Shown here: positions 26,562-52,069 of the stretch, in pieces
Layout of the letters: the number at the start of each line of letters is the position of its first letter
Position numbering within the stretch: position 1 is the first letter of the stretch
NCBI GenBank assembly: GCA_029641185.1
Contig: JAPWGK010000015.1
Location: 1,175,704 to 1,239,703, forward strand
DNA length: 64,000 nucleotides
DNA from: Pseudofabraea citricarpa
Lineage: Eukaryota; Ascomycota; Leotiomycetes; Helotiales; Dermateaceae
Direction: 5' to 3'
Notes under the pieces: model-generated
Told to the model about the DNA's origin: nothing
Databases searched by the model: none
What the model saw: only the letters and a program-made list of their open reading frames with translations
Made by a program: the position numbers and the translations under genes

Positions 26562-28529
26562 GTATATATATAAATAATATATATATAATTATAAATATAT
26601 ATTAATACTTAGTTAGATTATTTATTTATAAATATATTAACTTATATATAATATATTATTCGTATAAGATACTAAGACTTAATTAAATACTTATAACTTA
26701 AGAAATATAAATAAAAAGTATATAATTCTCTTAATATTAATAACTTTTTTTTTTAATAAATATTAAATTAGATTATATTTTATATAAAATAATATTATAT
26801 AAGTATAATATTATTAAATAATTAATACTAAGAAAGTATAAATAACTAAGAAACTAAAGATAAATACTTATAAATATTTATTATATAATAAAAGTAAAAA
26901 TAATTTAAGTAATTAAGAAAATATAAAAAATATAATTTATATTATTTAATTAAAAGAAATAAAAGATTATAAGAAAAAGCGTATTTATATAAGAATAATA
27001 CTTATTATTAAATAGATTATCTTAGTTATCTTAATCTTTTATATAATAAATTACTTAATTCTAGATTTTATAATATATCTTATAATTTATTATACTTAAT
27101 ATATATATTATTTTCTAAGAATATAAGATTAATATATTATCCTTAAATAAATAAATAATATAAGCTAAGTAATTATATTATATACGATTATTTATTAACT
27201 AAAATATTAGATTAAGTTTATAAATTAAAGATTTTCTTATATTATTTTTAGTTCTCTTAATTCGATTAATATTAGGAATAATTTAATTATTATTTTATAA
27301 ATTAAGAATCTTACTTATAAAATCTTTATTTTATAATTTTTTCTTTTTTCTTTTTTATAATCTTAATCTTAATCTTAATTATAATATTATTAAGCTTAAG
27401 TATTTCTTTTTTTTTCTTTTTTTTCTTCTTATTATTTACTTTTTTAAATAAGTAAATTAAAGATATTTTATATAACTTATAAAATAAAAATAAAAAATTT
27501 ATTAAAAGTATATAAAATATAAAAGTTTTTTATAAGATTTATTTTTTTTTCTTTTTTTTTCTTAATATATAAATAATCTTTTATATTTTATACTAGTTAC
27601 TTATTATTTTATAAGTTATAAATATTTACGATTTTTCTTAAGCTAAAAATATATTTATTAATAAGCTTATAAAACTTATTATAATATTTTCTATTAATAA
27701 TATTAAGCTTATTAATATAAAAACTTCCTAAAAAACTTTTTTTTTTAGTTTTTTTTTTAAAAAAAAGTTTTATATATATATTTTAGCTAAAAAAAAATTT
27801 AATTAAATTAAAATAAATTTTATAAATTTACTTATAATATAATTAATAATTTTTATCCTAAGCGTATACTTATTATATATAAGAAATTTTAGTATAACTT
27901 CTTAGCTCTTAAGAAAAAGTCTAAGTATCTTCCTAATAAAACTAATAACTTTAATTATAAGAAGCTTCTTATTCTAAAAGATTTACTTTTCTTTTATAAG
28001 TATTTTTATCTAATACTTATATTATTATTAATTATTATCTAGTTATTTTATATAATAAACGCGATTATATAAATTAGCTTATATTTACTTATACTTATAA
28101 AAGCGATAATCTTAAGTTTCTTAAGAGTTTAAATAATATATATATATATTTTTAAATAATTTATCTAATAATAATAAAAATAATAATAATATTTTTAATT
28201 AATATATTATTAAATATATTTATTATTTTTATAAGTATTAAATTTACTAAAAAGAAAATCTTAATTAATTTTTTATATATTAGAAGCTTAATATTAAAAA
28301 TCTTAGTTTAAAGTTTCTTAGTAAAATATTTTAGGTTATTAAAAATAAGTACTTAGTTTCTTATCTTAATTATTTAAAAAATATCTTAAGTAATAAAAGT
28401 AATAATTATTATTTTAAGATTATTAGTAAAAGTAAATATTATTTATTATATTTATCTAAATATATTTATATTTTAATTTTTAATTTAATTTTATTTTTTA
28501 TTAAGTATTTTATTATTATTTTTTAAAAA

Positions 28530-28927
28530 AACTAGGTTTTAAGTATATATATATTAGAAGCCTTTTTAAGCGCTAGGCTAAAAAAAGCTAGAAAAAAGAC
28601 TTACTTTTATTATATAATAAAAATAATATATAACTTATATTTATATAATTTTATTATTTACTTTTTAAAAAAAGAATCTCCTAAGTTATAAGTATATTAT
28701 ATAACTTTTTATTAGCCTAATTATTATTATATTATATTTTTCCCTACTAAGTTATAATCTTATAATATTAATTAATACTAGATTATATAGAATTTATTAA
28801 TCTACTTTTACTAACTTAATATAAAAGCTTTTAATTATCTTAGGAGATAATTTATTAGTAATAATTAATTCTTTCTAATTATTATTATTATTATAACTTA
28901 TAAATATATAAATATAATTATTATAAA
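28530..28927 (+). repeat. Direct repeat, copy 2 (about 400 bp)
   Basis: Second copy of the repeat at 26151, sharing AAGCGCTAGGCTAAAAAAAG, the poly-TA middle and the GAGATAAT...TTAGTAATAATTAA end. It is slightly less mutated than copy 1 (for example GAAGCC against GAAGTC). Confidence 0.65.
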
Positions 28928-29113
28928 TTATATATATATAAATATAATTATTATAAGTCGTATATATAATATTACTAGTTATAATAATTAAAATAATATT
29001 ATTATAATTTATATTAATAATAATATAAAAGAATAATTTTATTTCTAAGTAACTAATATATATAATTATAATTTATCTTATTATTTATAAAAAAGAAATA
29101 TTTAATATTTAAG

Positions 29114-29152
<39 letters not shown>

Positions 29153-29770
29153 CTTTACTTTTAAGTTATTATTTTAGATTTACTACGATTTATTATAACT
29201 TATATTATAATAAGATTATATACTCGATTTTATTATTTTTTTTACTTTTATAAGAAGTTATTATTATCTTAGATATTATTATATAAAAGCTTTATAAGTA
29301 TTTTTTAAGCGCTCTAGAAGTTATATATTATTATTTATACTTTATTATTATAATTAATTAACTACTTTTTTCGCCTCTTACTTTTATAATTATTAATTCG
29401 ATTATTAAATATATCTTATATATAATTATTTATATTATATTAGTTACTATTTATATTTATAATATTATAAATTTAAATACGTCCTAATATTTATTATCTT
29501 ATTATATTAGTAATTTATATAAAGACTTTAAATAATAATAAATATAAACTAAATTATAAATTATAATATTAATACGATAAACTTATTTAATATTAACTTT
29601 TAATAATAAGCTAAGCTCTTAGAATACTTAGAGTATAATTACGCGATTATTAGTAAAAATAGCTAAAAATATTAAAACTTATAAATATAATCGATTATTA
29701 AGTTTATAAGATATTAATCCGAGTTATTTTATAAGTTAGATACTTAATAATAAATATAAAGAATAATACT

Positions 29771-29974
29771 TATTATAAATAAAAATAAAGTAAAACTTAG
29801 AATTAATATTATATAAATAATAATTAATAATTATATAATTATTTACTACGAATTATCTAAAGAATAAGAGATTAACTAAAAGAGAACGTAATTTTATACT
29901 AGCTAATTAGTACTAAGAGATTATATAAGTAGTATAACTTATATAATAACTAAGGTATAATTTAGGTTATAATA
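29771..29974 (-). repeat. LTR of outer copia element (3' LTR in element orientation)
   Basis: 204 bp, plus-strand ends TATTATAAAT...GGTTATAATA. Aligns without gaps that I can see to the three other LTRs. Confidence 0.88.
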
Positions 29975-32900
29975 TATCTCCTAGTTAATTCTAATTAATC
30001 TTAAGAGCGTACGCTTTTATTAGTTATAATTATATATTACTTATATTACTAAAACGTCTTATATTACTTATTATAATCCTACGTATATTATTATCTAATT
30101 AGGCTAACTTATCCTACTAGATTATTAATCTTTCGATTTACTAGAGAGTCTTACTTATAAATTTTTACGCTTTCTATTAATTCTTTTCTTTTTTATAATA
30201 ATTCTTTTATATATACTTTAACTTAAGATTATTTTTTTATCTTACTTTTGCCTTTCTTTTTTTTAATCTTTTAATTTAATTATAAAAGATCTTAATTATA
30301 ATAGCTCCTAAGACTTTTACTAAGATTACTTATAATATAAATATAACTTATACGTATATTATTTAATTCTAATATTTAAGAAATTACTTGTATTCTTATA
30401 AAAGTAAGTTTAATCTTATATTCTTTTATTATTATATAATTATAATCTAATTATTCTAGTATTTTAATAATATTTCTATTAATAAGAATTTTATTAATAA
30501 GAAGATTAATAATCTTTAATAAAAGACTTCTAAGCTTAAGTTTAAATATTATCGTTTTAGTATTTCTCTTATATTCTTTAATCCTAAGTTCCCTTATATT
30601 AAGGATTTATCTTTTACTAAGAGAAATAAATAAGTTAAAAAGACTTTAATTTTTTCTTTAATATCTAATATCTTAAGTAAGAATATTCCTAATTTTAATA
30701 CTTTTATTTCTTTTAATATATTTATTATTTATATTATATAAGAGGATCTTAATTAAACTATAAATAATTATATTTATAATAAAAAAGATTTAAATACTTT
30801 TATTTAGTTTTTTACTTTTACTTATTAGTTAAGTTTTTGTATTTATATTATTATTACTACTAAGAAAAAATATACCTAAAAAAAGAAAAACTTACTTATA
30901 AAAAAAAAACTAAGTAAAAATATACTTATATTACTAAGATTATTTATTATATATAAAAGGTTTATAATAAAAAGCTCGCTTATAAGTAAATAAATTATAA
31001 ATAATATAAGTATTATAAGAAAACTTATAAGAAAACTCCTAATATTTTTAAGGTTATTACTCCTAAGGTCTAGAAAACTAATACTAAAATAAACCTTACT
31101 TATAATACTTTTACTTATTACTAGAAAAAAGAAACTTATAAGTATTTTTATCTTAGTTATTTAAAGAATATCTTAGATAATTCTTCTAATAATATTTATT
31201 ATAATAATAAGGGTTCTAGTACTTATTATTAGAGATATTCTTTTAGATATTTTTACTAAGAATTTTTTTTTATTTAATCTTTTATTAATTTTTTTCTTAT
31301 AAGAATTACTAATACTTAGGATCCTAATAAGCTAAAAGCTTAGGATTATACTAAGAAGACGATTACGTATATAAGTATTATATTCCTTTTAGACTTAGTT
31401 ATATACTAATATTACTTATAATAATTAATATAATTTTATTATATTATTTATATTACTTTAGAATTAATTAAAATTAAGCTTAAGCTTAAGATATCTTTTA
31501 TTATTATTAGTCCTCTTATATTAGAGAAATATATTAAGTTAAAAAAGCTTCTTAGTAAGATTATTAACTTAATAGTTAACTAAAGCTAGAAAAAACTTTA
31601 GAGATAAGCTAAAAGCTTAGTAACTAGAGATATTACTTAGAAATACTTTTTATCTTATATTAATAAAATAAGCTTATTATAAATACTTTTATATAAATAA
31701 AATATTATAATATAAATATATAAAAATATAAATAAAATAATCTAAAATAAATATAAATTTTATTAATATTTCTTAATCGAGCTTCTTAATTTTACTTTTT
31801 ACGTCTTAAAGGTTTAGTAAAATATAAAAAGCTTTAAACTTATATTATAAGAGATTCTTAGTTAAACTATTAGCTAATATATCTTTAATTAAAATATAAG
31901 TTATATTAAAAATATTTTTATTATATTTTTAATATAATTATATATTTTAGATATTTATATAATATAACTTAGTTATTATTCTTATATTCTCTTTTATAAT
32001 TAATTTAATCGTTTATTAATTATTATATAAAATTATCTAGGTATTACTAATATTAAGTTTAAGATTATAAAAGAACCTTTAAAAAGCTATAATTTCCTTA
32101 GCTATAAGCTTTATATCTCTTATTTCGGCTTTAATAATTAAGGTTAATATTATTATTTAATAAGTAACTTATTATATAATAAATCTACTAAATAAGAAAA
32201 TAATATAATTATATAAAAAATATTATATTTTAGTATTATTAGTAAAAGACGCGTCTAATATAATTAATAATTAGATCTTATATAGCTTATAGTTATACTC
32301 GATTATAAGAAAATATATATTAAATAAGTATTTAATTATCTAACTAATTATAGTTAAATACTTAGGGCTAAGGTTTTAGAAGAAATTAAAAAGTTATAAA
32401 ATAATAAAAGTAATATTTATACGTACGATAATAATAATATATAATATAAATCTTATTTTCTCTTAGTACTTTTTAATCTAAGCTAATAAAGTCTTTCTTA
32501 TATATTTTATAAATTCTATTATTAGTAGAAATATACTTAGGTACTTTTTATTTATAAGCTTAAATTTTTATATAATCTTCTTAATATAAGTATTATATAT
32601 TATTTAGATTTTCTTATATTTTTTATTTTTAATTACTCTAATACCTAGGAACTATTAGATTTTACTAAGCGTATATAAGTTATATACTAAGTTTAAATCT
32701 TTAATAATCTCTTAAGTACGCTTTTTATTATTTTTATAAAATAAAACTTAGATATTATTTATATAAAATATAATAAAAATCTTTTATTATTTATTAAAGA
32801 AGATATAATATACGAATCCTTTTTATATAAGATAAAACCTAAGCTTTTTAAGGTAATAAAAAAATATATAAACTAAAGCGCTAAAGAATCTTTTAAGTTA

Positions 32901-35900
32901 TATAATATTTAATTGGTTTTTACGCTTTTACTAGGGATTTTAAATCCTTCTAGAAGATAATAAGTTATAAATATATTACTTATATCTTTTTTTATATTAA
33001 TAAATATATTTATAATATTAAATTATTTAATCTTAAGATTAAATCGAGTAACTAAAACTATTATAATATAAAAGGATCTAGCTACTAATATAACTATATA
33101 TATTAAAATAATCGTTTTATTATCTTAGAAATTATCTCAAATAATAATTCTTACTTAATATCTAATAAAAAATCCTAATAAATCTAGCTTATAACTAAAT
33201 ACTTATTTTAATAAGATTAAAATACTCTTAGCTTCTAATATTTAGATTATCTTCTAATAGTCTTTTATTTTAAGGTTTCTAAGCTCGAGTTTTCTTTTAC
33301 TTAGAATTATACTTTAAGAGGATAATTTTTAAGATTATTTTATTTCTTTAGTATTAGAGGAAGTTTACTTATTCTAATATACGAAGTTATACTTAAGTAA
33401 GCTTACTTAATATATTTATTAGCTCTTAAGACTTTAATTTATATTATTATTACTAATTATAATATATATTATTTGATAATAAGTATTTTCCTTAGCTTCT
33501 AATAAATTAAGCTAAAACGTATTAAAAAAGTCTTTAAGTATATTAATATCTTAATATCTTATTTTACTTATTATTTTTTTAAGTCTTTTACTAGTATTCG
33601 TATTTCTTATAAATATAATAAAAACTCTTTTTTTAGTTTTATTTCTAGAGGTATTATTATTATTTTTATTTTTATCTTAAAGCCGCTTACTTAATCTTAT
33701 AATAAGGCTATAGACTTTTCCTTTTATACTTTTTCCTAGGTTTCTTTATAATAAGCTTAGTAGGATTACTAGATTTTATTAAGCGTTTTATTACTTATAA
33801 TAAGCTTTATATATTAGATAATAGTTTTAGTTAAGTTATTTCCTTTTATTTTTAATTTATTACTTAGTCTATTAATAATAATTATTAGATAATTACCTAG
33901 GAGTATATTTCTTATATTAGTCTTATATTTATATTATTATTAGTATTACGATTAATTATACTCTTGTTTTTATCTTAAATATATAAATCTTTATTTATTA
34001 TTACTAGTATACTTTTAGTAAAAGAAATATTTCTTAGAAATAAAAGGTTAATTTTTAGCTCTAAAGTATTTTTCTATTATTTTATTATTTAGATTAATAT
34101 AAATAATTCTTTAGAAGATAATCCTAGTATTTCTATAATCTTAGAATTTAAATCTAAGGTTTCAGATATTTTTTTATCTCCTAGAATAATTAGATTTATA
34201 TCTATTAATTTTACTAGTATTTTATTTTACTTATTAACTAAGTTTTTATTACTTAGTTTATTATATTTTTAAGGATTAACCTAGTATCTTAGATCTTATT
34301 ATCTTTTATCTCGATTAGTTTAGTAATATTTTCGAATAATATTAAGTAATTAATTTTTCGCTTACTTCTTAAGTTAAGATATATAAAATATCTTTATTAA
34401 ATATAATATTCCTAGTAATAATTACTTAGTCGAATACTAGAACTTATATTTAATAAATATTAGAAGTAATATATTTTACTAAATATCTAATATACTCTTA
34501 TAATTATATTTTAAATATTTAATAATATTAATTAACTTTTTTATCTTTTATTAATAAATATATCTAAGTATTATATATATAAATCTTATTTTAATTAGAT
34601 CTAAGATCGTTTATTATATATATTATAATTATAAGATTATATTACCTAAAATATTAGAAAAATTATAAGTTAAATATTTAGTTAAATAAGCGAAAATTAT
34701 AATCTTATAAAAGACTTATATTTAAAAGATATACTCTAGTATATATAATCTTTAGCTATAAATACTTAGGTAAGTTAGTTATTACTTTTATTTTAATCGA
34801 TTTTATAATAATCTTTTATTTTATTTTTTTAAGAGTATTATTTAGCTTATAAGTATATATTAGTAAAAGCTTTAACTTAATCTTCTCTTTTATAATCTAG
34901 TATTAGTAACCGTTATTTTAATATTAGAGATTATTATAGTATTATTATTATACTTAAGGATATAAATTAATAAATTATATTATCTTTTTACTTATATCTT
35001 AAAGTCTTATATTATAGAAATATAAATATATATTCTTTTAAGTAATATAAGAAAATAAATATTTTTCTTATTAAACTTATCTTTTATAATAAATAACTAA
35101 GAGAATTTATTAAACTTATTACTAAAGTCGAATAAATCCTAGGATATTTATTAAAATAATCTTAGAGATTATTAATATCTTAGATAATATAAGATTATTT
35201 ATTTTATATATATAATTATATAACTTTTATATTTTATATAAGTAATTCCTTTAATTATTATATTTCTTATATTTAAGATAAGATATTATAAAGTCTTTAG
35301 ACTAAGATATCTTACTTATATATATTATTTATTTTTTAAATTAACCTAAGGTTTCGCTTATTTTTTATTTCGTCTTAGCTTATAAGTTATTTCTTTAGTA
35401 ATTATAAGGAATATTATAATATTATATATACTTAAGAGAATAATTTAGAGGATTAATAAATAATTAGAAATAAGCTTATATTTAAGGAATATTAAGTTAA
35501 ATTTTCTATAAAATTTCTTAAGTATAATATTATTCCTCTTAGAACTAAAACGAAAAATATAATTTAAACTTATATATTAAACTTTCGAATCTATAAGATA
35601 AGTCTTAGAAATAATATTTATATAAAAACCTTTTATTATTATTATATTAGAAAATAATAGATCTTTAGTATCTTTTCTTTTAGGTTCTTATAATATATTT
35701 CGAATTAGCTTTTTATTTCTCTTAAGAATAAGTAATAATTATATTCTTATTTTAATTATATTATTTACTCTAGACTTAATAAATATACTAGTAATAAGTA
35801 TATTTTTGTTATTTATTAGATTAAGTAAATTATAATTATCTAAGAGAATATTATTTATAAGAAGATAAATAAAGAAATTAAAAGTAAAGTAAATATTTTC

Positions 35901-36617
35901 TTTTAATTTCTTAATTATAAGAGAGAAATTAATAAAAGTAATATTAATTTATCTAGGTAATATAAGAATAAGCTTATTTTTTTTAAGCTTAATCTTCCTA
36001 AGAATAATAAATTAAGCTAGTTTTTCTTAATAAGTTTATCTTATAAAACCTTAAAATTCTTTTTCTTAAGTTTATTTTTAATTTAATCGTATTTCTTTAA
36101 TAAGATCTTATAATTACTAGGTTTTTTAAGTATTTTACTAGTAAAAGTAAACTTTATAATATAATATTCTTCTAAAGCCTAAGGATATCTAAAGGCTCTT
36201 TTATATAAGTAATTTAACTTCTAGAAGCTCGATTATAATAATAAGCCTTAGTAATTATCTAATTATTTACTAAGAATAATAAAAATCGATTATTTTCGTA
36301 TACTCTTATATATTAAGTTCTTATATACTAAGGCGAAAAACTAGTTCTTATAATCTTTAAGTAAATATATTTTATTACTTAATTCTTTTACTTTAAGAAG
36401 CTCTATTAATTAGTTTCTAGCCTAGTTAAAAGTAAGCTTATATAAAATTATATTAAGAAAGTCTTTAATTATAAGTAATCTTTTAATATTAGAGCTATAA
36501 TATACCTAAGCTCGAGTTAATACTTATAATTAATCCTTATACTAATAAAAAAGATTATTTATATTATTTCGTATTTACTTAAGTACTTAGTAATACTTTT
36601 ATCTTATAATTATTTTA

Positions 36618-36622
36618 GTACT
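36618..36622. repeat. Target-site duplication, left
   Basis: GTACT immediately before the inner element; repeated at 44353-44357. The uninterrupted site is seen within the inner copy at 43475-43479. Confidence 0.85.
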
Positions 36623-36826
36623 TGTTATAGACAAAAATAAAGTAAAGCTTAGAATTAATATTATATAGATAATAATTAATAATTATATAATTATCTGCTA
36701 CGGATTATCTAAAGAGCAAGAGATTAACTTAGGGAGAACGTAGTTTTATACTAGCTAATTAATACTAAGGGATTACGCGGGCGACACGGCTTATATAATA
36801 GCCGAGGTATAATTTAGGTTATAATA
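36623..36826 (-). repeat. LTR of inner copia element (3' LTR in element orientation)
   Basis: 204 bp. It keeps the unmutated end TGTTATAGACA on the plus strand, which is the canonical ...CA end of the LTR on the minus strand. It also has a GC-richer middle (ACGCGGGCGACACGGC). Confidence 0.9.
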
Positions 36827-37139
36827 TATCCCCTAGTTAGTTTTAATTAATCTTAAGAGCGCGCGCTCCTATTAGCTATAATCGTACGCTACTTATGTTA
36901 CCGAAACGTCTTATACTATTTATCGCGATCCCGCGTACGCTACTACCTAATCGGGCTAGCTCGGCCCGCTAGATTATTAATCTTCTAACCTACTAGAAAG
37001 CCTCGCTTATAAATCCTTACGCTTTCTATTATTTTTTTTTCTTTTTTCTTTTTTATAATAACTCTCTTATACGCGCTTTAACTTAAGATTATCTTTTTGC
37101 TTTACTTTTACTTTTCTTCTTTTCGATCTTTTAATTTAA

Positions 37140-38460
37140 TCGCAAAAGATCTTAATTACGATAACCCCTAAGACCTCTGCTAAGGTTACCCGTAATACGA
37201 ATATAACTTATACGCGCGTTATTTAGTTTTAATATCGCGAAGTTACTCGCGCTCTTATAAAAGTAAATTTAATATTATATTCTTTTATTATTAGATAATT
37301 ATAATTTAATTACTTTAGCGCTTCGAGGATATCCCTATTAATAAGGATTTCGTTAACGATAAAGTCGATAATCTTTAGTAGGATAATCCTAAGCTCGAGT
37401 TTAGACGTTATTCTTCTAGTATTTCCCCCGCGTTTTCCGATCTTAATCTCCCTACCGTTAAGGACTTCTCTTTTACTAAGAGAGCTAAGCGAGTTAAGAA
37501 GACTCCGATTTTCTCTTTAGTATCTAGTACCTTAAGTAAGAATATTTCTAATCTCGGTACTCTTGTTTCCTTTAGTATATCTATTATTTATATTACGCGA
37601 GGCGATCCTAATTAGGTTATAGATAATTACGTTTACGATAAAGAAGATTTAGACGCTCTTGTTTAGCCTTTTGCTTTTGCTTGCTAGTCGAGTCTTCGTA
37701 CTCGCGCTACTACTACTACTAAGAAAAAGCGCGCTAAGGAAAAAAAAAAATATACTTATAAGGAGAAGGCTAAATAAAAACGCGCTCGTACTACTAAGAT
37801 TACCCGCCGTACGTAAGAGGCTCGCGATAAGAAGCTCGCTCGTAAGTAAATAACTTATAAGTAATAAAAGCGTCGTAAGAAGACTCGTAAGAAAACTCCC
37901 GATATTTTTAAGGTTCTTACTCCTAAGGTCTAGAAAACTAATACTAGAGTAAACCTTACTTATAATACTCTTGCTCGCCGCTAGAAAGAAGAAGCTTATA
38001 AGCGTTCTTGCCTTAGTTATTTAAAAAGCGCCTTAGGTAATTTTTCTAATAGTATTTATTATAATAATAAGGGTTCTAGTACTTGTTACTAGAGATATTC
38101 TTTTAGATACTCCTGCTAAGAAATCTCTTCTTTTATTTAGCCTTTTACTAATTCTTTTCTTATAAGAATCGCTAATACTTAGGGTCCTAGTAAACTAAAG
38201 GCTTAGGATTACGCTAAGAAGGCGATTACTTATATAAGTATTATACTCCCTCGTGCTTAGTTATATACTAATATTACTTATAGTAATTAATACGACTTCG
38301 CTATATTATTCGTGTTACTCTAGAATTAATCGATATTAAGCTTAAGCTTAAGATATCTTCTATTACTATTAGTTCTCTTATATTAGAGAAATATACTAAG
38401 TTAAAGGAGCTTCTTAGTAAGATCGTTAACTTAGTAGTTAACTAAAGCTAGAAAGGACTT
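37140..38460 (+). pseudogene. Antisense frame rich in Lys and Arg between pol and the 3' LTR
   Basis: On the plus strand, opposite to pol, one reading frame runs for over 400 codons, broken only by TAG and TAA. It starts around 37,140, passes through phrases such as NKDFVNDKVDN and FSFTKRAKRVKK, and then enters a strongly basic segment (about 37,700-37,930) that includes TTTTKKKRAKEKKK. The matching stretch of the outer copy (about 30,290-31,590) reads the same way. I do not recognise a family. It could be an extra gene captured by the element, or a chance frame: with TG depleted, TGA stops are rare everywhere, which weakens the evidence. Confidence 0.4.
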
Positions 38461-38634
38461 TAGAGATAAGCTAGGAGCTTAGTAACTAAAGGTACTACTT
38501 AGGAATACTTCCCGCCTTATATTAATAAAATAAGCTTACTATAAGCGCCCTTATATAAATGAAATATTATAATATAAATATATAAAAATATAAATAAGAT
38601 AATCTAAAATAAATATAAACTCTATTAATATTTC

Positions 38635-41600
38635 TTAATCGAGCTTCTCGATTTTTCCTCTTATATCTTAGAGGTTTAGTAGAATACGAAAAGCTTTAAA
38701 CTTATATCGTAGGAGATTCTTAGTTAAACTATTAGCTAATATATCCTTAGTTAGGATATAAGTTATATTAAAAGTACCTTTATTATACTCTTAACGTAAT
38801 TATATATTTTGGATATTTATATAGCGTAGCTTAGTTATTATTCTTATATTCTCTCCTACGATTAATTTAATCGTTTATTAGTTATTATATAAAATTATCT
38901 AGGTATTACTAATATTAAGTTTAAGATCACGAAAGAACCTTTAAAGAGTTATAGTTTCCTTAGCTATAAGCTTTATACCTTTTATTTCGGCTTCGGTAGT
39001 TAAGGTCGATATTATCGTTTAACAAGTAATTTATTATATAATAAGCCTACCAAATAAGGAAATAATATAATTATACGAAAAGCGTCGCGTTTTAGTATTA
39101 TTAGCAAAAGACGCGTCCGACGCGATTAATAATTAGATTTTACCTAGCTTATAGTTATACTCGATCGTAAGAAAGCGTATACTAAATAAGTATTTGATTA
39201 TCTAATTAACCGCGGTTAAATACTTAGGGCTCGGGTTTTAGAGAAAATTAAAAAGCTACGAAGTAATAAAAGTAATATCTACGCGCACGGTAATAGTAGT
39301 ATATAATATAAATTCTATTTTCTCTTAGTACTCTTTAATCTAGGCTAATAAAGTCTTTCCTGTGTATTTTACGAATTCTATTATCGGCAGAGATATACTC
39401 GGGTACTTTTTATTTATAAGTTTAAATTTTCGTACGATCTTCTTAATATAAGTATCGTATATTATCTAGATCTTCTTACGCTCTTTATCTTTAATTACTC
39501 TAATACCTAGGAATTATTAGATTTTACCGAGCGTATATAAGTTATACACTAAGTTTAAATCTTTAATAATCTCTTAAGCGCGCTTTTTATCGTCTTTATA
39601 GAATAAGACTTAGATATTATTTATATAAAATACGATAAAAATCTTTCGCTATTTATCGAAGAAGATATACGGATCCTTTTTATATAAGATAAAACCTAAG
39701 TTTTTTAAGGTAATAGAAAAATATATAAACTAGAACGCTAGAGAATCTCTTAAGCTATATAATACTCGATCGATTTTTACGCTTTTGCTAGGGATTTTAA
39801 ATCCTTCTAAGAGACGGTAAGCTATAAATATATTACTCGTATCTCTCTTTATATTAATAAATATATTTACGATATCGAATTATCTAACCTTAAGATCGAA
39901 TCGAGTAGCTAAAGCTATTACGATACGGAAGGATCTAGCTACTAATATAACTACGTATATTAAAATAATCGTTTTATTATCTTAGAGATTATCTCGGACG
40001 ATAATTCTTACTCGATATCTGATAAGAAATCCTAATAAGTTTAACTTATAGCTAAATATTTATTTTAACGGGATTAAGGTACTCTCGGCTTCTAATATTT
40101 GGATTATCCTCTAATAATCTTTTACTTCGAGGTTTCTAAGCTCGAGCTTTACTTTTACTCGGAATTATACTCTAAGAGGATAATTTTTAAGATTATTTTA
40201 CTTCTTTAATACTAGTAGGAGTTTACTTATTCTAATATACGGAGTTATACTCGAGTAAGCTTACTTAGTATATTTACTAGCTCTCGAGACTTTAGTTTAT
40301 ATTATTACTACGATTACGGTATATATTATTCGATAATAAGTATTTTCCCTAGCTTCTAATAGATTAAGCTAAAACGTATTAAAGAAGTCTTCGAGTATAT
40401 TAATACCTTAATATCTTATTCTACTTATTATCTCTTCGAGTCTCTTACTAGTATTTATATTTCTTACGAACGTAACGAAAACTCCTTTTTTAGCTTTATT
40501 ACTAGAGGTATTATTATTACTTTTATCCTTGTCTTAGAGCCGCTTACTCGATCTTATAGTAGGGCCGTGGACTTTCCTTTCGTACTTCTTCCTAGGTCTC
40601 TCCGTAGTAGGCTTAGTAGGGTCGCTAAGCTTTATCGAGCGTTCTATTACTTACGATAAGCTTTATATATTAGATAATAGCTTCGGTCGAGTTATTTCCT
40701 CTTATTTTTAACCTATTACTTAGTTTACTAATAACGATTACTAGATAATTACCTGGGAGTATATTTCTCGCGTTAGTCTTATATTTGCGTTATTATTAGT
40801 ATTACGATTAATTATACCCTCGTTCTTACCTTAAACGTACGGATTTCTACTTATTATTACTAGTATACTTTTAGTAGAAGGAGTATTTCTTAGAGATAAA
40901 AGGCTAGTTTTTAGCTCTAGAGTATTTTTCTGCTACTTTATTATCTAGATCGATACGAATAACTCTTTAGAAGACGATCCTAGCGTTTTTATAATCTTAG
41001 AATTTAAATCTAGGGTTTCGGATACTTTTTTACTCCCTAGAGTAACTAGATTTATATCCGTCGGCTTTACTAGTACTTTATTTTACTTATTAACTAAGTC
41101 TTTATTACTTAGGTTTATTATATTTTCGAGGATTAACTTAATATCTCGGATCTTGTTATCTCTTATCTCGATCGCCTTAGTAATATTTCGAACGATATCG
41201 AGCGACTAGTCTTTCGCTCGCTCTTAAGATAAGATATATAAAATATCTTTGTTAAACGTAATATTCCTAGTAATAATTACTCGGTCGAGTACTAGAACTT
41301 ATATTTGATAAATATTAAAAGTAATATATTCTACTAAATATCTAATATACTCCCGTAGTTATATTTTAAATACTTGACGACGTCGATTAGCTTTTCTATC
41401 TTTTATTAATAGATATACCCGAGTATTATATATATAAATCTTATTTTAATCAGGTCTAAGATCGTCTATTATACGTATTATAATTATAGGATTATATTAC
41501 CTGAAATATTAGAGAAACTATAAGTCGAGTACTTGGTTAGGTAAGCGAAAACTATAGCCTTACGAAGGGCTTATATTTAAAAGGTATACTCTAGCGCGCG

Positions 41601-43480
41601 TAATTTCTAGCTATAAACGCTTAAGTAGGTTAGCTATTACTCTTATCTTAATCGATTTTATAACGATCTTTTATCTTACTCTTTTAGGAGTATTATTTAG
41701 CTTATAAGTATATATTAGTAAAAGCTTTAACTCGATCTTCTCTTCTACGACCTAGCGCTAGTAACCGGTTATTTTAACGTTAGAGATTATCGTAGTATTA
41801 TTATTATACTTAAGGATATAAATTAATAGATTATATTATCTCCTTACTTATACCTCGAAGTCTTATATTATAGGAAATACGGACGCGTATTCTTTTAAGT
41901 AAAGCGAGAAAACGAATATTTTCCTATTAAATTTATCTTTTATAATAAGTAACTAAGAGGACCCGTCGAACCTATTACTAAAGTCGAATAAATCCTAGGA
42001 TACTCGCTAAAACGGTCTTAGAGATCGTCGATATCTTAGACGACGTAAGATTACTTACTTCGCGTATATAATCGCGTAGCTTTTATATTTTATACGAGCG
42101 GTTCCCTTAATTATTACGTTCCTTGTATTTAAGATAAGATATTATAAAGCCTCTAGACCGAGATATTTTACTCGTATATATTATTTATCTTCTAAATTAA
42201 CCCGGGGCTTCGCTTATTCTTTATTTTATCTTAGCCTATAGGTTATCTCTCTAGCGATCGTAAGGAACGCTATAATATTATATATACTTAAGGGAATAAT
42301 TTAGGGGATCGAGAAGTAATTAAAAATAAGCTTATATTTAAGAAATATTAAGTTAAACTCTTTATAGAGCTTCTTAAGTATAATATTATTCCTCTTAGAA
42401 CTAAAACGAAAAGTATAATCTAAACCTATATATTAAACTTTCGAATCTATAAGACGAGCCTCGGAAATAATATTCGTATAAAAACCTTTTACTACTATTA
42501 TATTAGAAAGTAATAGATCTTTAGTATTCTCTCCTTCGGGTCCTTATAATATATTTCGAATTAGCCTTTTGCCTCTCCTAAGAATAAGTAATAATTACGT
42601 TCTCGCTTTAATTATATCGTTTAACCCGGACTTAATAAACGTATTAGCGATAAATATATCTTTGCTATTTACTAGATTAAGTAAGCTATAGTTATCTAGG
42701 AGGGTATTATTTATAAGAGGGTAAATAGAAAAATCAAAGGTAAAATAAATATTTCCCCTTAATCCCTTAATTATAAGAGAGAAATTAATAAAAGTAATAT
42801 TAACTTATCTAGGGTAATATAAGAATAAGCTTATCTTTCCCGAGCTTAATCCCCCTAAGGATAATAAGTTAAGCTAGTCTTTCTTAACGAGCTTATCTTA
42901 TAAGGCCTCGAAGCTTTTCTTCTTAAGTTTATTTTTAATTTAATCGTATTTCTTTAATAAAATCTTATAATCGCTAGGTCTTTTAAGCGTCTTACTAATA
43001 AAAGTAAACTCTATAATACGATATTCTTTAGGAGCCTAGGGATATTTGAAGGCTCTTTTATATAAGTAGTTTAACTTCTAGGAGCTCGATCGTAATAATA
43101 AGCCTTAATAATTATCCGATCGTCCGCTAAGGGTAACAAAGATCGATTATCCTCGTATACTCTTGCGTATCGAGTTCTCGTACGCTAAGGCTAAGAACTA
43201 GTTCCTATAGTCTTTAAGTAAGCGTATTCTATTACTTAATTCCTTAGCTCTAAGGAGCTTTATTAATTAGTTTCTAGCTTAGTTAAGGGTAAGCTTATAT
43301 AAAACCGTATTAAGGAAGTCTTTAATTATAAGTAATCCTTCGATATTAGGAATACGATATACCTAAGCTCGAGTTAATACTCGTAACTAATCCTTATACT
43401 AACGGAGAGGGTTATTTATATTATTTTATACTTGCTCGAGTACTTGACGGTACTTTTATCTTATAATTATTTTAGTACTT
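38635..43480 (-). pseudogene. Inner copia gag-pol, RIP-mutated
   Basis: Minus-strand frame from about 43,480 down to 38,635. The start reads as a Gag-like Trp/Arg-rich helical region (about 43,470-43,100). The RT part has the FLGIRVIKDKERKK phrase typical of copia, after the altered YVDDI motif. RNase H ends with TKDILANSLTK, RYKFKAFRILLNL and DIRGKIEKLD. Many codons are TAG or TAA where Gln or Trp is expected. The product would be the Gag-protease-integrase-RT-RNase H polyprotein; this copy cannot make it. Confidence 0.75.
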
Positions 43481-44148
43481 ACAAGGGAAAGGGTAAATTA
43501 CCGTTCTAAAGCTCGGACTAAATTCTATAAGAAGATTTTATTCTTACGAATAAGAGTAATTATATATAATACGAGGAGCTTATAATCTACGGTAGTATTT
43601 ACCTAATTTTATATTACTTAATATCTCGACGATATTTATACCTAGCGTAATTATTTTAATATATAGCTCTTAGAAAGTATTATAAACTTCTTTTTAACGT
43701 TTACGAGTATCGCAGGTACTAGTTTTAGCGACTTATTAGCTAGTCTTCTTTAGTCTTTAGGGAAAGCTATAAAAGTAATTATAAGAGTATTTCTTTCCGT
43801 ATTAAGATCGCGTATAAGTATCGCGATTATTAGAGGGAGGTTAAGCTCTTCGGAGATAACGTAAGATACGTTAAGAGTACTTAGATCGAGGAGATACCAG
43901 ATATTATAGAACTAAGCGGCGAATTAGTATTAGAGGAACTACGTAGGCTATCTTACGCGCTTTTTAAGGTAGATACTAGCTTCGACGCCGACCTCTTTGT
44001 TATTTAGGGTTATTATATTAAAAGTAATAATAAAAACGAGGTTTTATTAATCGTAATAATTAGAAGAAAGGAAGTATAATATTCTAAGGATTCTCTAGAT
44101 CCGTTAGCGTAGCAAAGGAAGCTTTATAAGTTATACTAGGCTTATAAT

Positions 44149-44352
44149 TATCATAGACAGAAATAAAGTAAAACTTAGAATTAATATTATATAGATAATA
44201 ATTAATAATTATATAATTATCTGCTACGGATTATCTAAAGAGTAAGAGATTAACTTAGGGAGAACGTGGTTTTATATTAGCTGATCGGTGCTAAGGGATT
44301 ACGCGGGCGGCACGGCTTATATAGTAGCCGAGGTATAATTTGGGTTACGATA
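44149..44352 (-). repeat. LTR of inner copia element (5' LTR in element orientation)
   Basis: 204 bp, plus-strand ends TATCATAGAC...GGTTACGATA. Least mutated of the four in its middle (GCTGATCGGTGCTAAGGG). Confidence 0.9.
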
Positions 44353-44357
44353 GTACT
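44353..44357. repeat. Target-site duplication, right
   Basis: GTACT immediately after the inner element, matching 36618-36622; the outer element's own sequence resumes with TATAAGAGAAAAAG. Confidence 0.85.
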
Positions 44358-45033
44358 TATAAGAGAAAAAGTAAATTATTATTCTAAAACTCGAATTAAA
44401 TTTTATAAGAAGATTTTATTCTTATAAATAAGAGTAATTATATATAATATAAAAAGCTTATAATTTATAATAATATTTATTTAATTTTATATTACTTAAT
44501 ATCTTAATAATATTTATACCTAGTATAATTATTCTAATATATAACTCTTAGAAAATATTATAAACTTCTTTTTAATATTTATAAGTATTATAAGTACTAG
44601 AACTACTAGCTTATTAGCTAGTATATATTATAATTTAAGAAAAGCTATAAAAGTAATTATAAGAGTATTTCTTTTTATATTAAGTTCGCTTATAAGTATT
44701 ATAATTATTAGAGGGAGATTAAGTTTTTTAGAGATAATATAAGATATATTAGGAATACTTAGATTAAGAAAATATTATTATATAAATATTATAAAACTAA
44801 GTAGTAAATTAATATTAGAGGAATTATATAAGTTATCTTATACGCTTTTTAAGATAAATACTAGCTTTAATATTAATTTCTTTATTATTTAAGGTTATTA
44901 TATTAAAAGTAATAATAAAAATAAGGTTTTATTAATTATAATAATTAGAAGAAAGAAAGTATAATATTCTAAGGATTCTTTAGATCTATTAGTATAATAA
45001 AAAAAGCTTTATAAGTTATACTAAGCTTATAAT

Positions 45034-45237
45034 TATTATAAATAGAAATAAAATAAAGCTTAGAATTAATATTATATAAATAATAATTAATAATTATATA
45101 ATTATCTACTATAAATTATCTAAAAAGTAAGAGATTAACTTAGGGAGAATATAATTTTATACTAGCTAATTAGTATTAAGAGATTATATAAGTAGCACGA
45201 CTTATATAATAGCTAAGATATAATTTAGGTTATAATA
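45034..45237 (-). repeat. LTR of outer copia element (5' LTR in element orientation)
   Basis: 204 bp, plus-strand ends TATTATAAAT...GGTTATAATA, followed by ATATT, the right-hand target duplication of the outer element. Confidence 0.88.
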
Positions 45238-48200
45238 ATATTAGAATATTTAGGAGATTAAAAACTTATAATAAATAATAAGTAATAATTAAAATAATAT
45301 AATAATATAAAAGTTAAAAGTTTTTAGGAAAATAAAATAACTAGAATAATAAGAATATTAGAAGAATTAAATACTTATAAAAGATAAAAGATAATTATAA
45401 TTATAAGAATATATAACTTTAAAAATTATCTAGAGATATATAAATACGTATATTATTAGGAATATTAAGATTATTATTAGAATAATAAAAGTATATCTTT
45501 ATAAGTCTTAGTTTAGGTAAAAGATATAATATCTAAAATTAGAGGAAGATTAAAAGAGATATTATAATAATAAGTATTAAAAAGACCTTAAAAGCTAGAA
45601 ACTAAAAAGATATAAGACTCTAGTATTTTTATTTATAAATAATAATTTTAAGAAATAACTTTAACCTTAGTATAAGTATAAAACAAGTAATTATATTAGA
45701 CTAAATAAGGTTTTACTAAAAGCTTAGGCTAAGATAAAAAAGCTCTTAGTTAATATTAATAGGTATAAGTTATACTTAAAGCTAGAGAATATAAGAGGAT
45801 AAAAGAAGTAATATATTATTATATTAGAAAGAAATATTAATTATTTATATATTTATTTAGTTTTTTAGTTTATTTTATTTAGTTAATTAATATAATTTAT
45901 ATTATTTATATTATTATTTATTTTCTAGTTAACTTTATAAGATAAATATTACTTATAATTTAATATAAGTATTTTCCTAATTTATTAAAGTTATTATAAA
46001 AATTATATTTATTATAATAATATCTTAATAAAAAGATAATATTCTTAAGTTTAGATCCTAATTATTCCTTACTTATACTAAGTTTCTTATAATAATAAGT
46101 TTAATATAAAAAATATATAAGAATCGAAATTATTTATTTATCTAATATTTAATTAAAAATATAATACTAAGACTTTCTAAAACTTAGGACCTAGGTTTTA
46201 GAATATAAATAAAATTAAGTTCGAATACTTAAATAAGAAATTAATTATCTTAGAAAAGTCTAAGAATAAGTAAAAAATATAATATAACTAGTAAAATAAA
46301 AATATAAAAGTAATAAAATAATAGCTACTTATTTCTAAGAAAGTTAATATAAAAAAAGTAAATCTTATATTATATTTAATTATAATATTAATTTTATCTT
46401 TCCTAGAAATATATAATAAAAGTAAATAATAAAAACTTAGAAGTAAAACTTTCTTATTTAAGTTATACTAATAAATATATATAATTTTAAGTTATTTCTT
46501 TTATATCTAATATTTTAATAATATAAAACTAAGAGAAATCTAATCTTATCTTATAACTTATTTCTTAAAGTTATATATTATATATATATAAAAGATAACG
46601 TTTAGATAAAATAAAAGTCTTAGATATTTAACTAAAAAGACTTTTATTTTATTTTTTTAATTATTTTATAATTTATAATTTATTATTATTTTACTTAATC
46701 TTTTCTTAGTACTTACTTAGTACTTAACTTAAGCTTATATAACTTTAATCTAATATTATAATATTATCTTAAGAATACTCTTTTATTATTAATCTTTCTT
46801 TCTTACTTATTTTTTCTTATAAATAAAAATAAAAGAAAAAAAAGAAGCTTTTAATATTTTTTTTAATTTATTAAGCTTAGAAACCTTACCTAATATAAGT
46901 ATTCCTAGTAAGAAAGAGAAATAAATAGTTATCTAGCCTAAGATAATATATAAAATAATATAAGTTATTTTAAAGTTTATTTTCTTAGCTTTATTAATAT
47001 TCTACTTTTTAAGAAAATAAAAGCTATTAAATTTATCTAGTATTATAAATAAATAATACTTAATAAAAGTCTTTTTAATACTAAGCTAATTCTTAGATAT
47101 TATATCCTAATTATTATTACTTATTAGTTTATCTTTATACTAAAATATTAGATAATTTTAAGTAAAAAGATTAAGTTATTTTTAAGAAAGTATTCCTAGA
47201 GAAATAAGCTAATTATAACTCTAAGTAACTTTAGTATATTATTAAGTTCTTAAATATTTTAGTTAATTATCTAAAGGAAGATATAACTAAAATCTTAGAA
47301 TTTCTAAAAATATATAAGCTAAGCTTTAAGCGATTACTTAATAATAATTAACTAAGCTCTTATAAATAAGTACGTAAACTTCTCTTTAATTTTTCTAAAG
47401 ATTATATTCTTATTATTATAAAGAAAAAGAAGATTAAGTATAATAAACTAAGAACTTTTATATTTACTAAGATTTATAAGTTTACTAAGACTTATACTTA
47501 AGCTAAGAAAGATTTTACCTACTTACTTAAGTAAGACGATAATAATATTATTATAATTAATAAGCTACTAGACTTTCTAGTTATATAATAATTTAAATAA
47601 GATTTTTAACTTGATTATATTTTTTATACTAATAATTAGTAACCTTATATAAATTATTATAACTCTTAGTATAATATTTAATAATATAACTATAAAAATA
47701 TAAGCCTCTAAAATAACTCCTAATTATAATAAGATTAATAATATTATTAATATAATAGCTAAGATATTATTAGAAGATTATATTATTTTTAAGATTATTA
47801 TAATTAAGTATTAGAAAAAGAAAGATAAGCTACTTATTATTACTAATAAAAGTAATACTAGAGTTAATATATTAGAAATTAAGTTTTATAATAATAAGTT
47901 AGAAGTTACTTAAGTAATATAATAATTATAATATTAAAGAGAAGATTAATAAGATATATTATATAATAAAAGCGTATAATTATAAGTATAATTCGAGTTA
48001 TATAATAAATATAAATCCTAGTATTAATATTTATATTAGTACTTTATAAACTGGCTATTAATAATTTAATTTTATAAATTAAGATTATATTTATTAGTAT
48101 TATAATAAGTACTTTTACTTTTCTAGTAATTACCTAATACTTATTTATTATATAAAAGTTAGAATCGTTTATAAAAATAAGAATAATAACTAGATATATC

Positions 48201-50599
48201 CTAGATTTATAATATCTAGTTTAATACTTTTTTAAAAACTAAAATATCTTAAGATATTTTTATTAAAAAATAATATTTATATTATAATAATAATAAGATT
48301 TTTTATTATAATCGATTTAAGATATTTTAGCTTAAAAAAATATAAAAACTAAATCTAATATTAATATTAAGATAAGTAAATATAAGTTTACTAAGATTTA
48401 TAAGTATAAGAAGAAAGATATTATAACTAGCTTTATTAATATATAAGATAATATTATAACTTTCTAGTATATAATATTAGTTATTAAATTTAAAGAAAAG
48501 CTAGACTCTTATTATTAGTTATAACTAGTTATAATAAGTAAAAATAATAAGATTAAGTAAATTATACTTAATACTCTTATTATTATATTAATAAGCCTAA
48601 GAGATATCCTAGTAATTACTAATATCTTCTAGTAAAACTAAGTTAAGTATAAGTATTTAAAAGAATACTAAGAAGCTAGAGAAAACTATTAAGTTTATTA
48701 TTCTAATATCTAGAATTATAAATTTAGATATTTCTAAGTAAATATTTTACTAATACGAATCTAATTAATACTAAGATATCTAAGTATAATAAGAAGCTCC
48801 TAAGTACTTAGGAAACCTTTATTAAGAACTTAATATAACTAAGCTTAGATAATAATAAGATCTTAGAAGTTACTAAAACTAAGGAGAAAAAAAAATATAA
48901 GTCTTATATCTTATAAGCTAAGATACTTAAAATATAATATATAATTATAAATTAAACGATTATACTTATATATAAATAAGCTTTTATCTTTAATTAAATA
49001 AACCTAGCTTAAGTTATAAGTATTAGTTATTATTAATTTCTAAGTAATATAATTTAAATTAATATACTAAAAGTTAGAAAGCTAGGATTTTATATAAATA
49101 TAAGCTTTCTTATATAAAATATAATTATTAAAGTTAATATTTTATTATATTATATTAATAACTTATATTTATTAGTAGTTATTTATAATTATAATAATTA
49201 GAAGTTAATATAAATAATAAATATAATAAATATAAGCGCTAAGATTAATATTATAACTTATAATATCTAGAGAAAAGCTAGTCTTAATATTAGAGAAAAG
49301 AAAAACCTTATAATTATTAATTATAAAGAAACGTCTTAAGTAATCCTTAGGGTTTATAATAATATATAACTAGATATTAGTAATATATAAGTAACCTTAT
49401 ATATTTATATAATATAATAATTAGGTTATAGCTTAATACTTAAGTAATTCTTTATATATAAGATAAAAGCGAGCTTAAAATAAAACTTAAAAAAAGATTA
49501 TAAGATATAAATTATAATTAATAATAATATTAATAGAATTAAGCTTTTATATCTTTATATTATTACTTATAAGTTTAAGATCTAAGTAATATAATAATAA
49601 AATCTAAGAGAATAACTCGGACTCTAGGAATAACTTAGAAAATTAGATATTAATTTATTATAAGAAAAATAAGTTAAGAGATACGTAAATAAATCTCTTA
49701 AATATATATAAGAAATCTTATTATATAAGAGAAGAAAATAAGCTTAATATAAGGAAAATAATAAAAGTTATAATATACTTATAAATATAAATATAAATAA
49801 AAAAGCTAATATTTTATTATATTTATTATTAAGATAAAAGAAATATAAGAAGCTTTAAGATATACTTAAGTTAGATTATAAGCTTAAGAAAGTTTTCTTA
49901 GTTAAAACTCTAAGACTTAAGAAAGCTTAATAAATACTTACTAGAAGCTTATTAAGTATTTTATTAGTTTTCTTAGAAATCTTAATATTAAATAATAAGC
50001 CTAGGATACCTAAAAGTAAAAAAATAATAAAAGTAACTTTATAAAATCTTTTTTTCCTAAAAAACGGTTTATATATTATTAGTCTTAAAAGATTATTAAG
50101 ATTATAAGTATTTTATAAAAATATAATACTTTCTTTTTTTAAAATAAAATATAAAAGAAAAATCTTAACTTTTTATAAGTAAAAAGCTTAAAAGATAAAA
50201 CTTATAAATCTAGAAGAAATATAAGAGTTAAGTTATTTAGTTTTAATAACTAGAAGAAAGTTATTAAGTTAATAAAAAATTACTTTTATTCTAGATTCTT
50301 ATAATAATTAGTTCGAGTTATAATATATAAAGTTTCTAAAAAGCTAAAAACTTATACTAGAAAGAATATAAGACTTATTTATAAGTAATATATTAATCTT
50401 AAAAGAGAAAGAAATATTCTAAGAGATATTTTATAATAAAAAAATATATTCTCGTTTAATTAATTAGAAAAAAAACTTATAAAACTAGAGATTATTAAGT
50501 TATAAGAGATTAAAATAATATTATATAAAATATAATAAATATAAAACTTTCTAATTACTAAGAGATTTTATAAGATTATATATAAGATAATAAGCGAGC

Positions 50600-51870
50600 G
50601 TATTACTAATAATATACTAGAAAGCTATTATAAGTTATATAAAAACCTATAGTTCCTAGTTATAAAAAAGAAGCTAAATAAATATAAACTTATAAGCGTA
50701 ACTATAAAGTATAATATAATAATAATTAGAAATATTAACTTTTTTTATTAGTAGATTCTTTTATAAAAGAATTTATATATCTCTAGATTATTAGCTTAAT
50801 TAATTTATTTTCTAGTTATAATTAGATTTTACTAGTTAAATAAAATAAAAACTTAATCGCTTTTTTTATAAATAATATTAGATTACTAAGAGTAATTATA
50901 CTTATATAAGACGTAATAAATTTAATAGCTTAGTTTATATATATTATATCTAAAATATTCTTTTCCTTAAATCTTATATTACTAAATTATTTCTTAATAA
51001 TATTAGTATTAAAAGACTTTATTTATAATATAATAATAAAAAAGTTTTTCTATAAAGTTTAATAATTTATAATAAAATATATATAAAACCTTAGTAAGAT
51101 ATTACTTAAGCTTAAGAAGATAAGTTTAATTATTATTCTAAGTTTAAGTTTTATATAAAAAGTATTAAAATTATTAGATTTATTTATAATCTTAAGAGTA
51201 AATCTCTTATTAATATAAAGATTATAAAGCTAGTTAATTAGTTAGATCTAACTAATACTAAAGAGGTTTATATCTTCTTAGGAATTTATATATATTATTA
51301 TATCTAGATTAAAATTTTTATACTTATTATAAAATTATTATATAATTTATTAAAAAAGAATATAATATTTAAATAAAATAAAAGATATTAAAAAGCTAAA
51401 CTAAAGCTTATTAAGATATTAGTAAAAGCTTTTTATCTTATTATAATTAATTATAAGCTAAGAGTAAGAATAATTTATATTATTATTAATATAAGTTTAG
51501 ATAGCTAAGAGAATATATTTTCTTAGGATAAATAAAATAAGAAAAAATATCTAAGTAAGTATAAGTTAGGAATATAAAATCTAGCTAAGCGTAATTATAA
51601 TATTACTAAGTATAATATAAAAGTATTCTTAAGATACTTAAGAAAATTAAAAAATATATTATTAGAATATATTTTATACTTAAGATAAATATTAATATTT
51701 TTATTACTTAGCTTAATAATATTACTTTAGATATACCTAGTATATTATTAATAAGATAGATTATCTAGATTCGGTTATTCGATTTTAAGGTTATATATAT
51801 ATCTAGTAAGAAAAATAAAGCTATAAATATTATCTGTAAAATATTTAAGTATTAGCTAAAATTAAATATA
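50600..51870 (+). pseudogene. Ty3/gypsy reverse transcriptase and RNase H relic
   Basis: Read through TAG/TAA, the plus strand follows the fungal gypsy pattern. An RT active-site-like DFIYNIIIKK lies near 51,016-51,046 and TNTKEVYIFLGIYIYYY near 51,260-51,305. These are followed by LLYNLLKK and an RNase H segment with KYKLGI-NLAKRNYNITKY near 51,560-51,610. It ends with RFGYSILRLYIYLVRKIK at about 51,770-51,825, the usual tether after RNase H. No LTRs or integrase could be assigned. Limits are approximate. Confidence 0.55.
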
Positions 51871-52069
51871 TAAATTATACTAAGGGTATTAGTAATATAT
51901 TAAGCGGGTTATTAATTATATATTAAGCGTACTAATAATATTAAACCTGCTATTATATTATTAGCCGGTTATAAATCGTATACTAGTTATATTAACCCTA
52001 CTAAAACTCTACTAGTTAATTACTAACTAGACGTTAGTCGCGTTTCTAGTATATAATTACTTATTTCCT

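What the first reader, a model, noticed from the sequence alone, without database searches (positions are those of the whole stretch)
29766..45242. Copia retrotransposon inserted into a copy of itself, with exact 204-bp LTRs and both target duplications preserved
Four LTRs of exactly 204 bp lie at 29771, 36623, 44149 and 45034. The middle two bound a 7,730-bp element flanked by GTACT on both sides. The uninterrupted site is visible in the inner copy at 43475-43479. Removing the insert and one GTACT leaves a 7,732-bp outer element flanked by ATACT/ATATT. The lengths agree within 2 bp, so this is a true nested insertion and not a tandem duplication. The insertion fell just after the 5' leader, at the start of gag.
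Basis: seen in the sequence. Interest (0 to 1): 0.8.

Follow-up and report, generated by a model that had tools for sequence, protein, structure and literature searches.

The report
Retrotransposon nested in its own copy
A virus-like jumping gene landed inside an older copy of itself near a contig end in what looks like a fungal genome, and a repeat-targeting mutation process scarred both copies, the older one much more heavily; nesting of this kind is known, but the mutation layers and a target site hit twice are worth keeping.

Summary
In detail: four gapless 204-bp LTRs, a 7,730-bp inner element flanked by GTACT/GTACT, and a 7,732-bp outer element split exactly at the homologous GTACT. The inner copy and four other genomic copies read through that site once, so this is a true nested insertion. 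RVT_2 in a sister copy supports Ty1/copia, minus strand. (2) Both copies carry RIP-type C-to-T change in different doses: outer GC 15-16%, inner 30%; 1,180 of 1,274 transitions are inner C, outer T. (3) The inner copy and its C18 sister differ by 716 transitions, 0 transversions, 0 indels in 7,730 bp: one recent cohort, so LTR divergence is no clock here. (4) A different LTR element, B, occupies the identical 5 bp in the C5 copy: a possible hotspot. "Start of gag" is not confirmed. Known kind of event; moderate interest.

The parts
29203..29765 (+). left part of host repeat X (third, oldest layer); homology to other X copies begins at 29202-29203 in 2 of 6 paralogues aligned and at 28847-29143 in the other 4
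29766..29770 (.). left target duplication of the outer element, ATACT
29771..29974 (-). outer LTR, left (3' LTR in element sense), 204 bp
29975..36617 (-). outer element, interior left of the inner insertion, GC about 16%
36618..36622 (.). left target duplication of the inner element, GTACT
36623..36826 (-). inner LTR, left (3' LTR in element sense), 204 bp
36827..44148 (-). inner element interior, GC about 30%
37153..38350 (-). second stop-poor stretch (element-sense frame 2, about 6.0-7.2 kb), fast-evolving by transversions; no family assigned
38953..43152 (-). stop-poor stretch in element-sense frame 0 (about 1.2-5.4 kb), the likely broken gag-pol frame; 74 in-frame stops in the inner copy
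39388..40074 (-). position corresponding to the RVT_2 (reverse transcriptase) match of the C18 sister copy; the window copy itself gave no match
   Evidence: placed by the gap-free register
43475..43479 (.). uninterrupted copy of the target site GTACT in the inner element
44139..44148 (-). candidate primer-binding site, resembling the complement of a tRNA-Met anticodon arm (8 of 10 bases)
44149..44352 (-). inner LTR, right (5' LTR in element sense), 204 bp
44353..44357 (.). right target duplication of the inner element, GTACT
44358..45033 (-). outer element, interior right of the insertion (its 5' leader side), GC about 15%
45034..45237 (-). outer LTR, right (5' LTR in element sense), 204 bp
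45238..45242 (.). right target duplication of the outer element, ATATT
45243..50630 (+). right part of host repeat X (at least this far), about 89-90% identical to the 6 paralogues aligned

Best explanation
This is a three-layer stack in an AT-rich island that runs to the end of a 1.24-Mb contig of what is probably an ascomycete fungus. A high-copy repeat X received a Ty1/copia-type element (outer copy, 5-bp duplication ATACT). Later a young copy of the same family integrated, in the same orientation, into the 5' leader side of the outer copy, with a 5-bp duplication GTACT. Both were mutated by a process like repeat-induced point mutation (RIP), which changes C to T, first at CpA. The outer copy carries a much heavier dose and split off from the family's source lineage earlier, so composition and transversions agree with the order that nesting demands. 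Shown here: the junctions, duplications, empty sites, and the direction, context and amount of mutation. Inferred: that the mutator is RIP in the strict premeiotic sense, and that the outer copy was already mutated when the inner one arrived.
For: Duplications and colinear break. Uninterrupted inner site in the inner copy and in the C18, C6, C14 and C11 copies. Outer empty site in X: 6 of 6 paralogues read; 35 of the 39 other strong left-flank places have a right-flank match within 16 bp (counted by eye). Mutation: inner vs outer 1,274 transitions, 50 transversions; 1,180 vs 94 in direction. On the + strand the left outer part keeps 2 CpA and 7 TpG in 6,857 bp, the inner 21 and 48 in 7,740 bp, against 1,794 and 1,743 in the 25-kb gene region. 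Age: inner vs C18 716 transitions, 0 transversions, 0 indels; 12 pieces of ten older copies differ from the inner by 0.33-1.12% transversions (LTR cross-matches included). Family: RVT_2 in the C18 copy, 48.1 bits over a cut-off of 31.6.
Against: No RVT_2 match was reported for the two window copies themselves; the family assignment rests on the sister copy. No integrase domain (one sub-threshold match, elsewhere) or gag domain (four matches, elsewhere) was found for this family. The 50 transversions may partly have arisen on the source lineage and not in the outer copy. The outer could be more mutated because RIP doses differ between copies. The CpG-heavy excess in the outer (82-88% of CpG C's changed) is not the classic CpA signature and may reflect a second, slower process.
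Confidence: 0.93

Rival explanations
1. Tandem duplication or unequal recombination between two copies made the four-LTR structure.
For: Same family, same orientation, direct repeats.
Against: GTACT is duplicated at the inner borders and single in the inner copy and four other copies; the outer is split at exactly that point; the outer duplications lie outside the whole structure, and X paralogues show the empty site; inner and outer belong to different mutation cohorts.
Confidence: 0.02
2. The two copies inserted close together in time and simply received different RIP doses; the composition difference says nothing about age.
For: RIP dose varies between copies (GC 13-20% among the older pieces).
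Against: The inner shares its dose with the C18 copy at a different locus (GC 0.299 and 0.307), and that pair has 0 transversions, while outer vs inner has 50 transversions and 17 gap openings, which RIP is not known to make (recalled).
Confidence: 0.07
3. The target site is a real integration hotspot: LTR-retrotransposon integration complexes favour this sequence or its chromatin, so self-nesting here is site preference and not accident. (Compatible with the best explanation.)
For: In the C5 copy an element of a different, 66-69% similar family (B) sits at the identical 5 bp, both borders read (GTATT / ATATT). In the C13 copy a third element (D) breaks the family 9 bp away, one border read. 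Of the 8 good matches to the site's left flank (a ninth is weak, 69%), 5 run through the site and 3 are interrupted within a 14-bp span. For 9 uniform insertions an exact pair has P = 0.0046 and three within 9 bp P = 0.0004.
Against: Post hoc, small numbers, only fetched copies surveyed; both borders were read for only three of the nine insertions, and three positions (C10, C14/D, C34) are approximate; integrases with weak sequence preference have far fewer effective sites than 7,730; the other target duplications read for this family (ATACT, GAATA, AACTT, ATATA, ATAAA/ATAAG) share no obvious motif.
Confidence: 0.35

Closest known systems
Nested LTR-retrotransposon clusters in a RIP fungus, Mycosphaerella graminicola (PMC4522978; passages seen)
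   Same: LTR elements inserted in LTR elements with 4-5 bp target duplications, in low-GC repeat regions with RIP-like mutation; 78 putative nested clusters reported.
   Different: The passages I saw do not order layers by RIP dose or transversions, and show no repeated hit of one 5-bp target; they give average LTR insertion ages, a measure that the present case shows to be unsafe under RIP.
'Autoinsertions' of plant LTR retrotransposons (PMC6911290; passages seen)
   Same: [quoted passage not shown] 5-bp duplications dominant; weak preference for palindromic targets (AGTACT here is a palindrome).
   Different: Plants; the preferred nesting region there is the 3' UTR, here the 5' leader side.
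Copia family RLC_Deimos burst in Zymoseptoria tritici (PMC9970103; passages seen)
   Same: One Copia family with very low-GC old copies and a later cohort with higher GC.
   Different: There the burst copies seem unaffected by RIP and lie closer to genes; here the young cohort (two copies found) is itself mutated and lies in AT-rich DNA.

Membership tests
Ty1/copia LTR retrotransposon | Copia-type reverse transcriptase (RVT_2) | tested here: met
   C18 sister copy, E = 2.0e-11, 48.1 bits over cut-off 31.6, on the strand opposite to the window-orientation match; no match reported in the window copies themselves
Ty1/copia LTR retrotransposon | Two LTRs with TG...CA ends and 5-bp target duplications | tested here: met
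   204-bp LTRs; 5-bp duplications at inner, outer (1 mismatch), C18, C14, C6 and an LTR on C41 that stands alone in the 1.4 kb fetched (1 mismatch), read. In the window TG survives at one of 8 LTR ends and CA at one end of the C18 copy; the other window ends read TA, as C-to-T change at TG/CA would give
Ty1/copia LTR retrotransposon | Integrase encoded upstream of reverse transcriptase | tested here: inconclusive
   rve: one sub-threshold match in the genome, not in this family
Ty1/copia LTR retrotransposon | gag domain | tested here: inconclusive
   Retrotran_gag_2: 4 matches, none at the places of this family; the sequence is heavily mutated
Half-tRNA (initiator Met) priming as in copia/Ty5 (recalled) | Primer site complementary to the anticodon arm of initiator tRNA-Met | tested here: inconclusive
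   C18 copy GTTATAAGCC vs GTTATGAGCC (complement of the arm of four tRNA-Met genes, found in 4 of the 19 loci), 9 of 10; inner copy 8 of 10. The arm motif used for the search was recalled, and no chance control was run for the match
Repeat-induced point mutation (RIP) | C-to-T transitions almost only, in repeats | tested here: met
   716 transitions: 0 transversions, inner vs C18; 1,274: 50, inner vs outer
Repeat-induced point mutation (RIP) | CpA preference | tested here: met
   Inner vs C18, C's of one copy changed in the other: CpA 31-65%, other contexts 8-18%. Against it: outer vs inner has CpA 92-98%, CpG 82-88%, CpC 43-47%, CpT 28-33%, not purely CpA
Repeat-induced point mutation (RIP) | Premeiotic, dependent on dedicated methyltransferase genes (recalled) | not testable with these tools
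   needs crosses or mutants; organism unnamed

The most novel reading that the evidence does not exclude
The 5' leader side of this Copia family contains a genuine integration hotspot (AGTACT) used independently by different LTR-retrotransposon families, so self-nesting in this genome is directed by target sequence or chromatin and not by chance.
Probability: 0.3. Interest if true: 0.5.

Novelty: new member of a known kind. Interest (0 to 1): 0.33.

Why it matters
Alone it is an ordinary self-nested retrotransposon. Its value is as a calibrated stack: three layers whose order is fixed by insertion logic, with a measured mutation dose for the two upper ones. It shows that LTR-LTR divergence would misdate such copies (17 of 204 differences, all transitions, in a copy with 0 transversions against its sister), and that transversions and indels give a usable relative clock. 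The repeated target site, if it holds up in more strains, would be a case of near-base-precise LTR-retrotransposon targeting in a fungus.

Tried and rejected
Considered that the source of the young pair was already mutated when it moved. Capture-recapture on CpA gives only 183 source sites, and 66 of 74 inner in-frame stops are shared with C18, which would fit. But in that stretch only 1 CAA/CAG/TGG codon is kept in both copies against 66 shared stops, as independent near-saturated hits would also give; 9 of the 24 CpA sites kept in both copies lie in the LTRs, 5% of the length, so the estimate is biased; and transversions in the pol-like stretch favour codon position 3 (distinct sites 12/5/21 for positions 1/2/3), a sign of a source kept functional. 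I rate a pre-scarred source as unlikely but not excluded. Shared non-CpA hits exceed independence (e.g. 21 of 960 CpT against 6.1 expected for C's kept in the outer); the numbers are small and site heterogeneity would also do it.

I make no claim that transversion dating or RIP layering of nested fungal elements is new in print. Searches (no hit) gave listings; I saw passages of five papers and read none whole. PMC10294615 gave RIP rates in Zymoseptoria; PMC10787394 notes RIP turning the LTR TG into TA.

Rows not used: a 2-kb trial chunk (overlaps the full left alignment); the L020 row of the site display, printed out of register, which is the C5 copy later mapped; the C14 element-D right border, mislocated by a short-word match (its position, about 4865, comes from BLAST ends). 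The C34 break (about 5624) is a BLAST end, and the C10 border has 3 unaligned bases.

Full report
What was checked. The window is the last 64 kb of contig C7 (1,239,703 bp) of a 44.0-Mb, 43-contig assembly. GC is 43-49% in the 2-kb steps up to 26 kb and 12-31% in those from there to the contig end. The open frame at 22201-23241 encodes an isochorismatase-like protein whose best named relatives are from ascomycete fungi (for example Rhypophila decipiens 64%, Fusarium duplospermum 62% identity), so a fungus is likely; the species is not known.

Structure. All four LTRs are 204 bp. The inner element (36623-44352, 7,730 bp) is bordered by GTACT on both sides. The outer halves (29771-36622 and 44358-45237) match the inner copy colinearly, and both break exactly at its GTACT 43475-43479. 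The C18, C6, C14 and C11 copies, and the inner copy, read straight through this site with one GTACT. That settles nested insertion. The element lies on the minus strand: in the C18 sister copy the RVT_2 match is on the strand opposite to the window-orientation match. In element sense 873 bp precede the target site, 669 bp of them inside the LTR. A stop-poor frame runs from about 1.2 to 5.4 kb and another, in a different frame, from about 6.0 to 7.2 kb. So the insertion is on the leader side, and 'start of gag' is not shown.

Third layer. The 800 bp left of the outer element match 39 other strong places in the genome, and at 35 of these the 800 bp from its right side match within 16 bp (counted by eye; each call scored only its 40 best candidates, so totals are lower bounds). 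In 6 of 6 paralogues read base by base the site is present once, ATACT in four and ATATT in two, the same two spellings as the outer duplications. Host repeat X therefore pre-dates the outer element. At least 13 of the 39 places lie within 25 kb of a contig end (with the contig lengths; lengths are not known to me for every contig).

Mutation layers. Inner vs outer: left part 6,840 columns, 83.0% identity, 1,123 transitions, 39 transversions; right part 873 columns, 81.4%, 151 and 11. Of 1,274 transitions 1,180 are C in the inner and T in the outer (either strand), 94 the reverse. The inner copy has few CpA but keeps 348 CpG; the left outer part has 57 CpG in 6,857 bp. Fractions of inner C's changed in the outer (left/right): CpA 0.98/0.92, CpG 0.82/0.88, CpC 0.43/0.47, CpT 0.33/0.28. 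Between the inner and C18 copies the CpA fraction is 0.31-0.65 and the others 0.08-0.18. A fast CpA-directed phase fits RIP; the CpG-rich excess in the outer copy may be further RIP or slower deamination, which I could not separate.

Relative age. Inner and C18 copies: 7,730 columns, 716 transitions, no transversion, no indel, with different target duplications (GTACT; GAATA). They were therefore almost identical at insertion and have since been changed by the C-to-T process alone. Twelve pieces of ten older copies differ from the inner by 0.33-1.12% transversions. Among eight copies compared in pairs, transversions run at 1.4-5.8 per kb outside the 5.9-7.3 kb stretch, the inner-C18 pair (0.0) apart. 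GC: inner 0.299, C18 0.307, older pieces 0.128-0.201. The inner and outer thus belong to different cohorts, in the order that nesting demands. Some of the outer-inner transversions may belong to the source lineage. That the outer was already mutated when hit is likely but not proved: the 5-bp target itself carries no CpA.

A site hit more than once. In the C5 copy of this family the same five bases are interrupted by element B (LTR about 197 bp), with GTATT and ATATT at its two borders, mapped to element positions 6853-6857 (window orientation) on both sides, identical to the inner insertion. In C13 a third element, D, breaks the copy 9 bp away; only one border was read, and the right-hand part of that copy was not among the matches. 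Of the 8 good matches to the left flank of the site, 5 run through it and 3 are interrupted within a 14-bp span. Altogether nine interruptions of this family were placed in the copies fetched (both borders read for three, three positions approximate). Under uniform placement an exact coincidence has P = 0.0046 and three within 9 bp P = 0.0004, but the test is post hoc and real integrases do not choose uniformly. AGTACT is palindromic, and weak palindrome preference is reported for plant LTR elements (PMC6911290, passages).

Comparison with what is known. Nested clusters with target duplications in a RIP fungus (PMC4522978, passages) and same-family 'autoinsertions' (PMC6911290, passages) are in print, and a Copia family with low-GC old copies and a later cohort is described in Zymoseptoria (PMC9970103, passages). 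The present case is a new member of that kind. The unusual points are the clean 716:0 cohort signature, the three ordered layers and the repeated target site.

Noticed in passing
window 37153-38350 (element-sense about 6.0-7.2 kb) and other copies: A stop-poor stretch downstream of the pol-like frame, in another frame, evolves several times faster by transversions than most of the element (pairwise 0.7-25.9 per kb against 1.4-5.8, inner-C18 pair apart) without a third-position bias (26/19/15 distinct sites); possibly an extra 3' ORF. Outer and C11 copies are nearly identical there (0.7 per kb). The 0.5-1.0 kb leader stretch is also raised in the four copies that cover it (5-11 transversions per 500 bp).
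   Followed up: partly
C5:1275009-1307563 (L018-L020, L055): Another copy of this family carries two insertions of the related family B, one at the identical 5-bp site used in the window.
   Followed up: partly
window 26509-27075: LTR of family B (26879-27075, 89% identity to the C5 one) beside element-D-like sequence (26509-26822) in the AT-rich island.
   Followed up: partly
many places: Host repeat X: of 39 further strong places at least 13 lie within 25 kb of a contig end, 11 of them with the same side facing the end (counted by eye): a possible subtelomeric repeat of unknown identity.
   Followed up: no
window 52068-63075: Several tandem arrays with 11-14-bp units (such as AGGCTAGTTTAA) and longer periods in the contig-terminal 12 kb.
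   Followed up: no
window 4680-5840 and 8267-9637: Open frames with LysM domains (one and four stretches) in the gene-rich part about 16-21 kb left of the AT-rich island.
   Followed up: no
C6:1260367-1261318 (L014): A copy of this family with an internal tandem duplication of about 280 bp on its 5' leader side.
   Followed up: no
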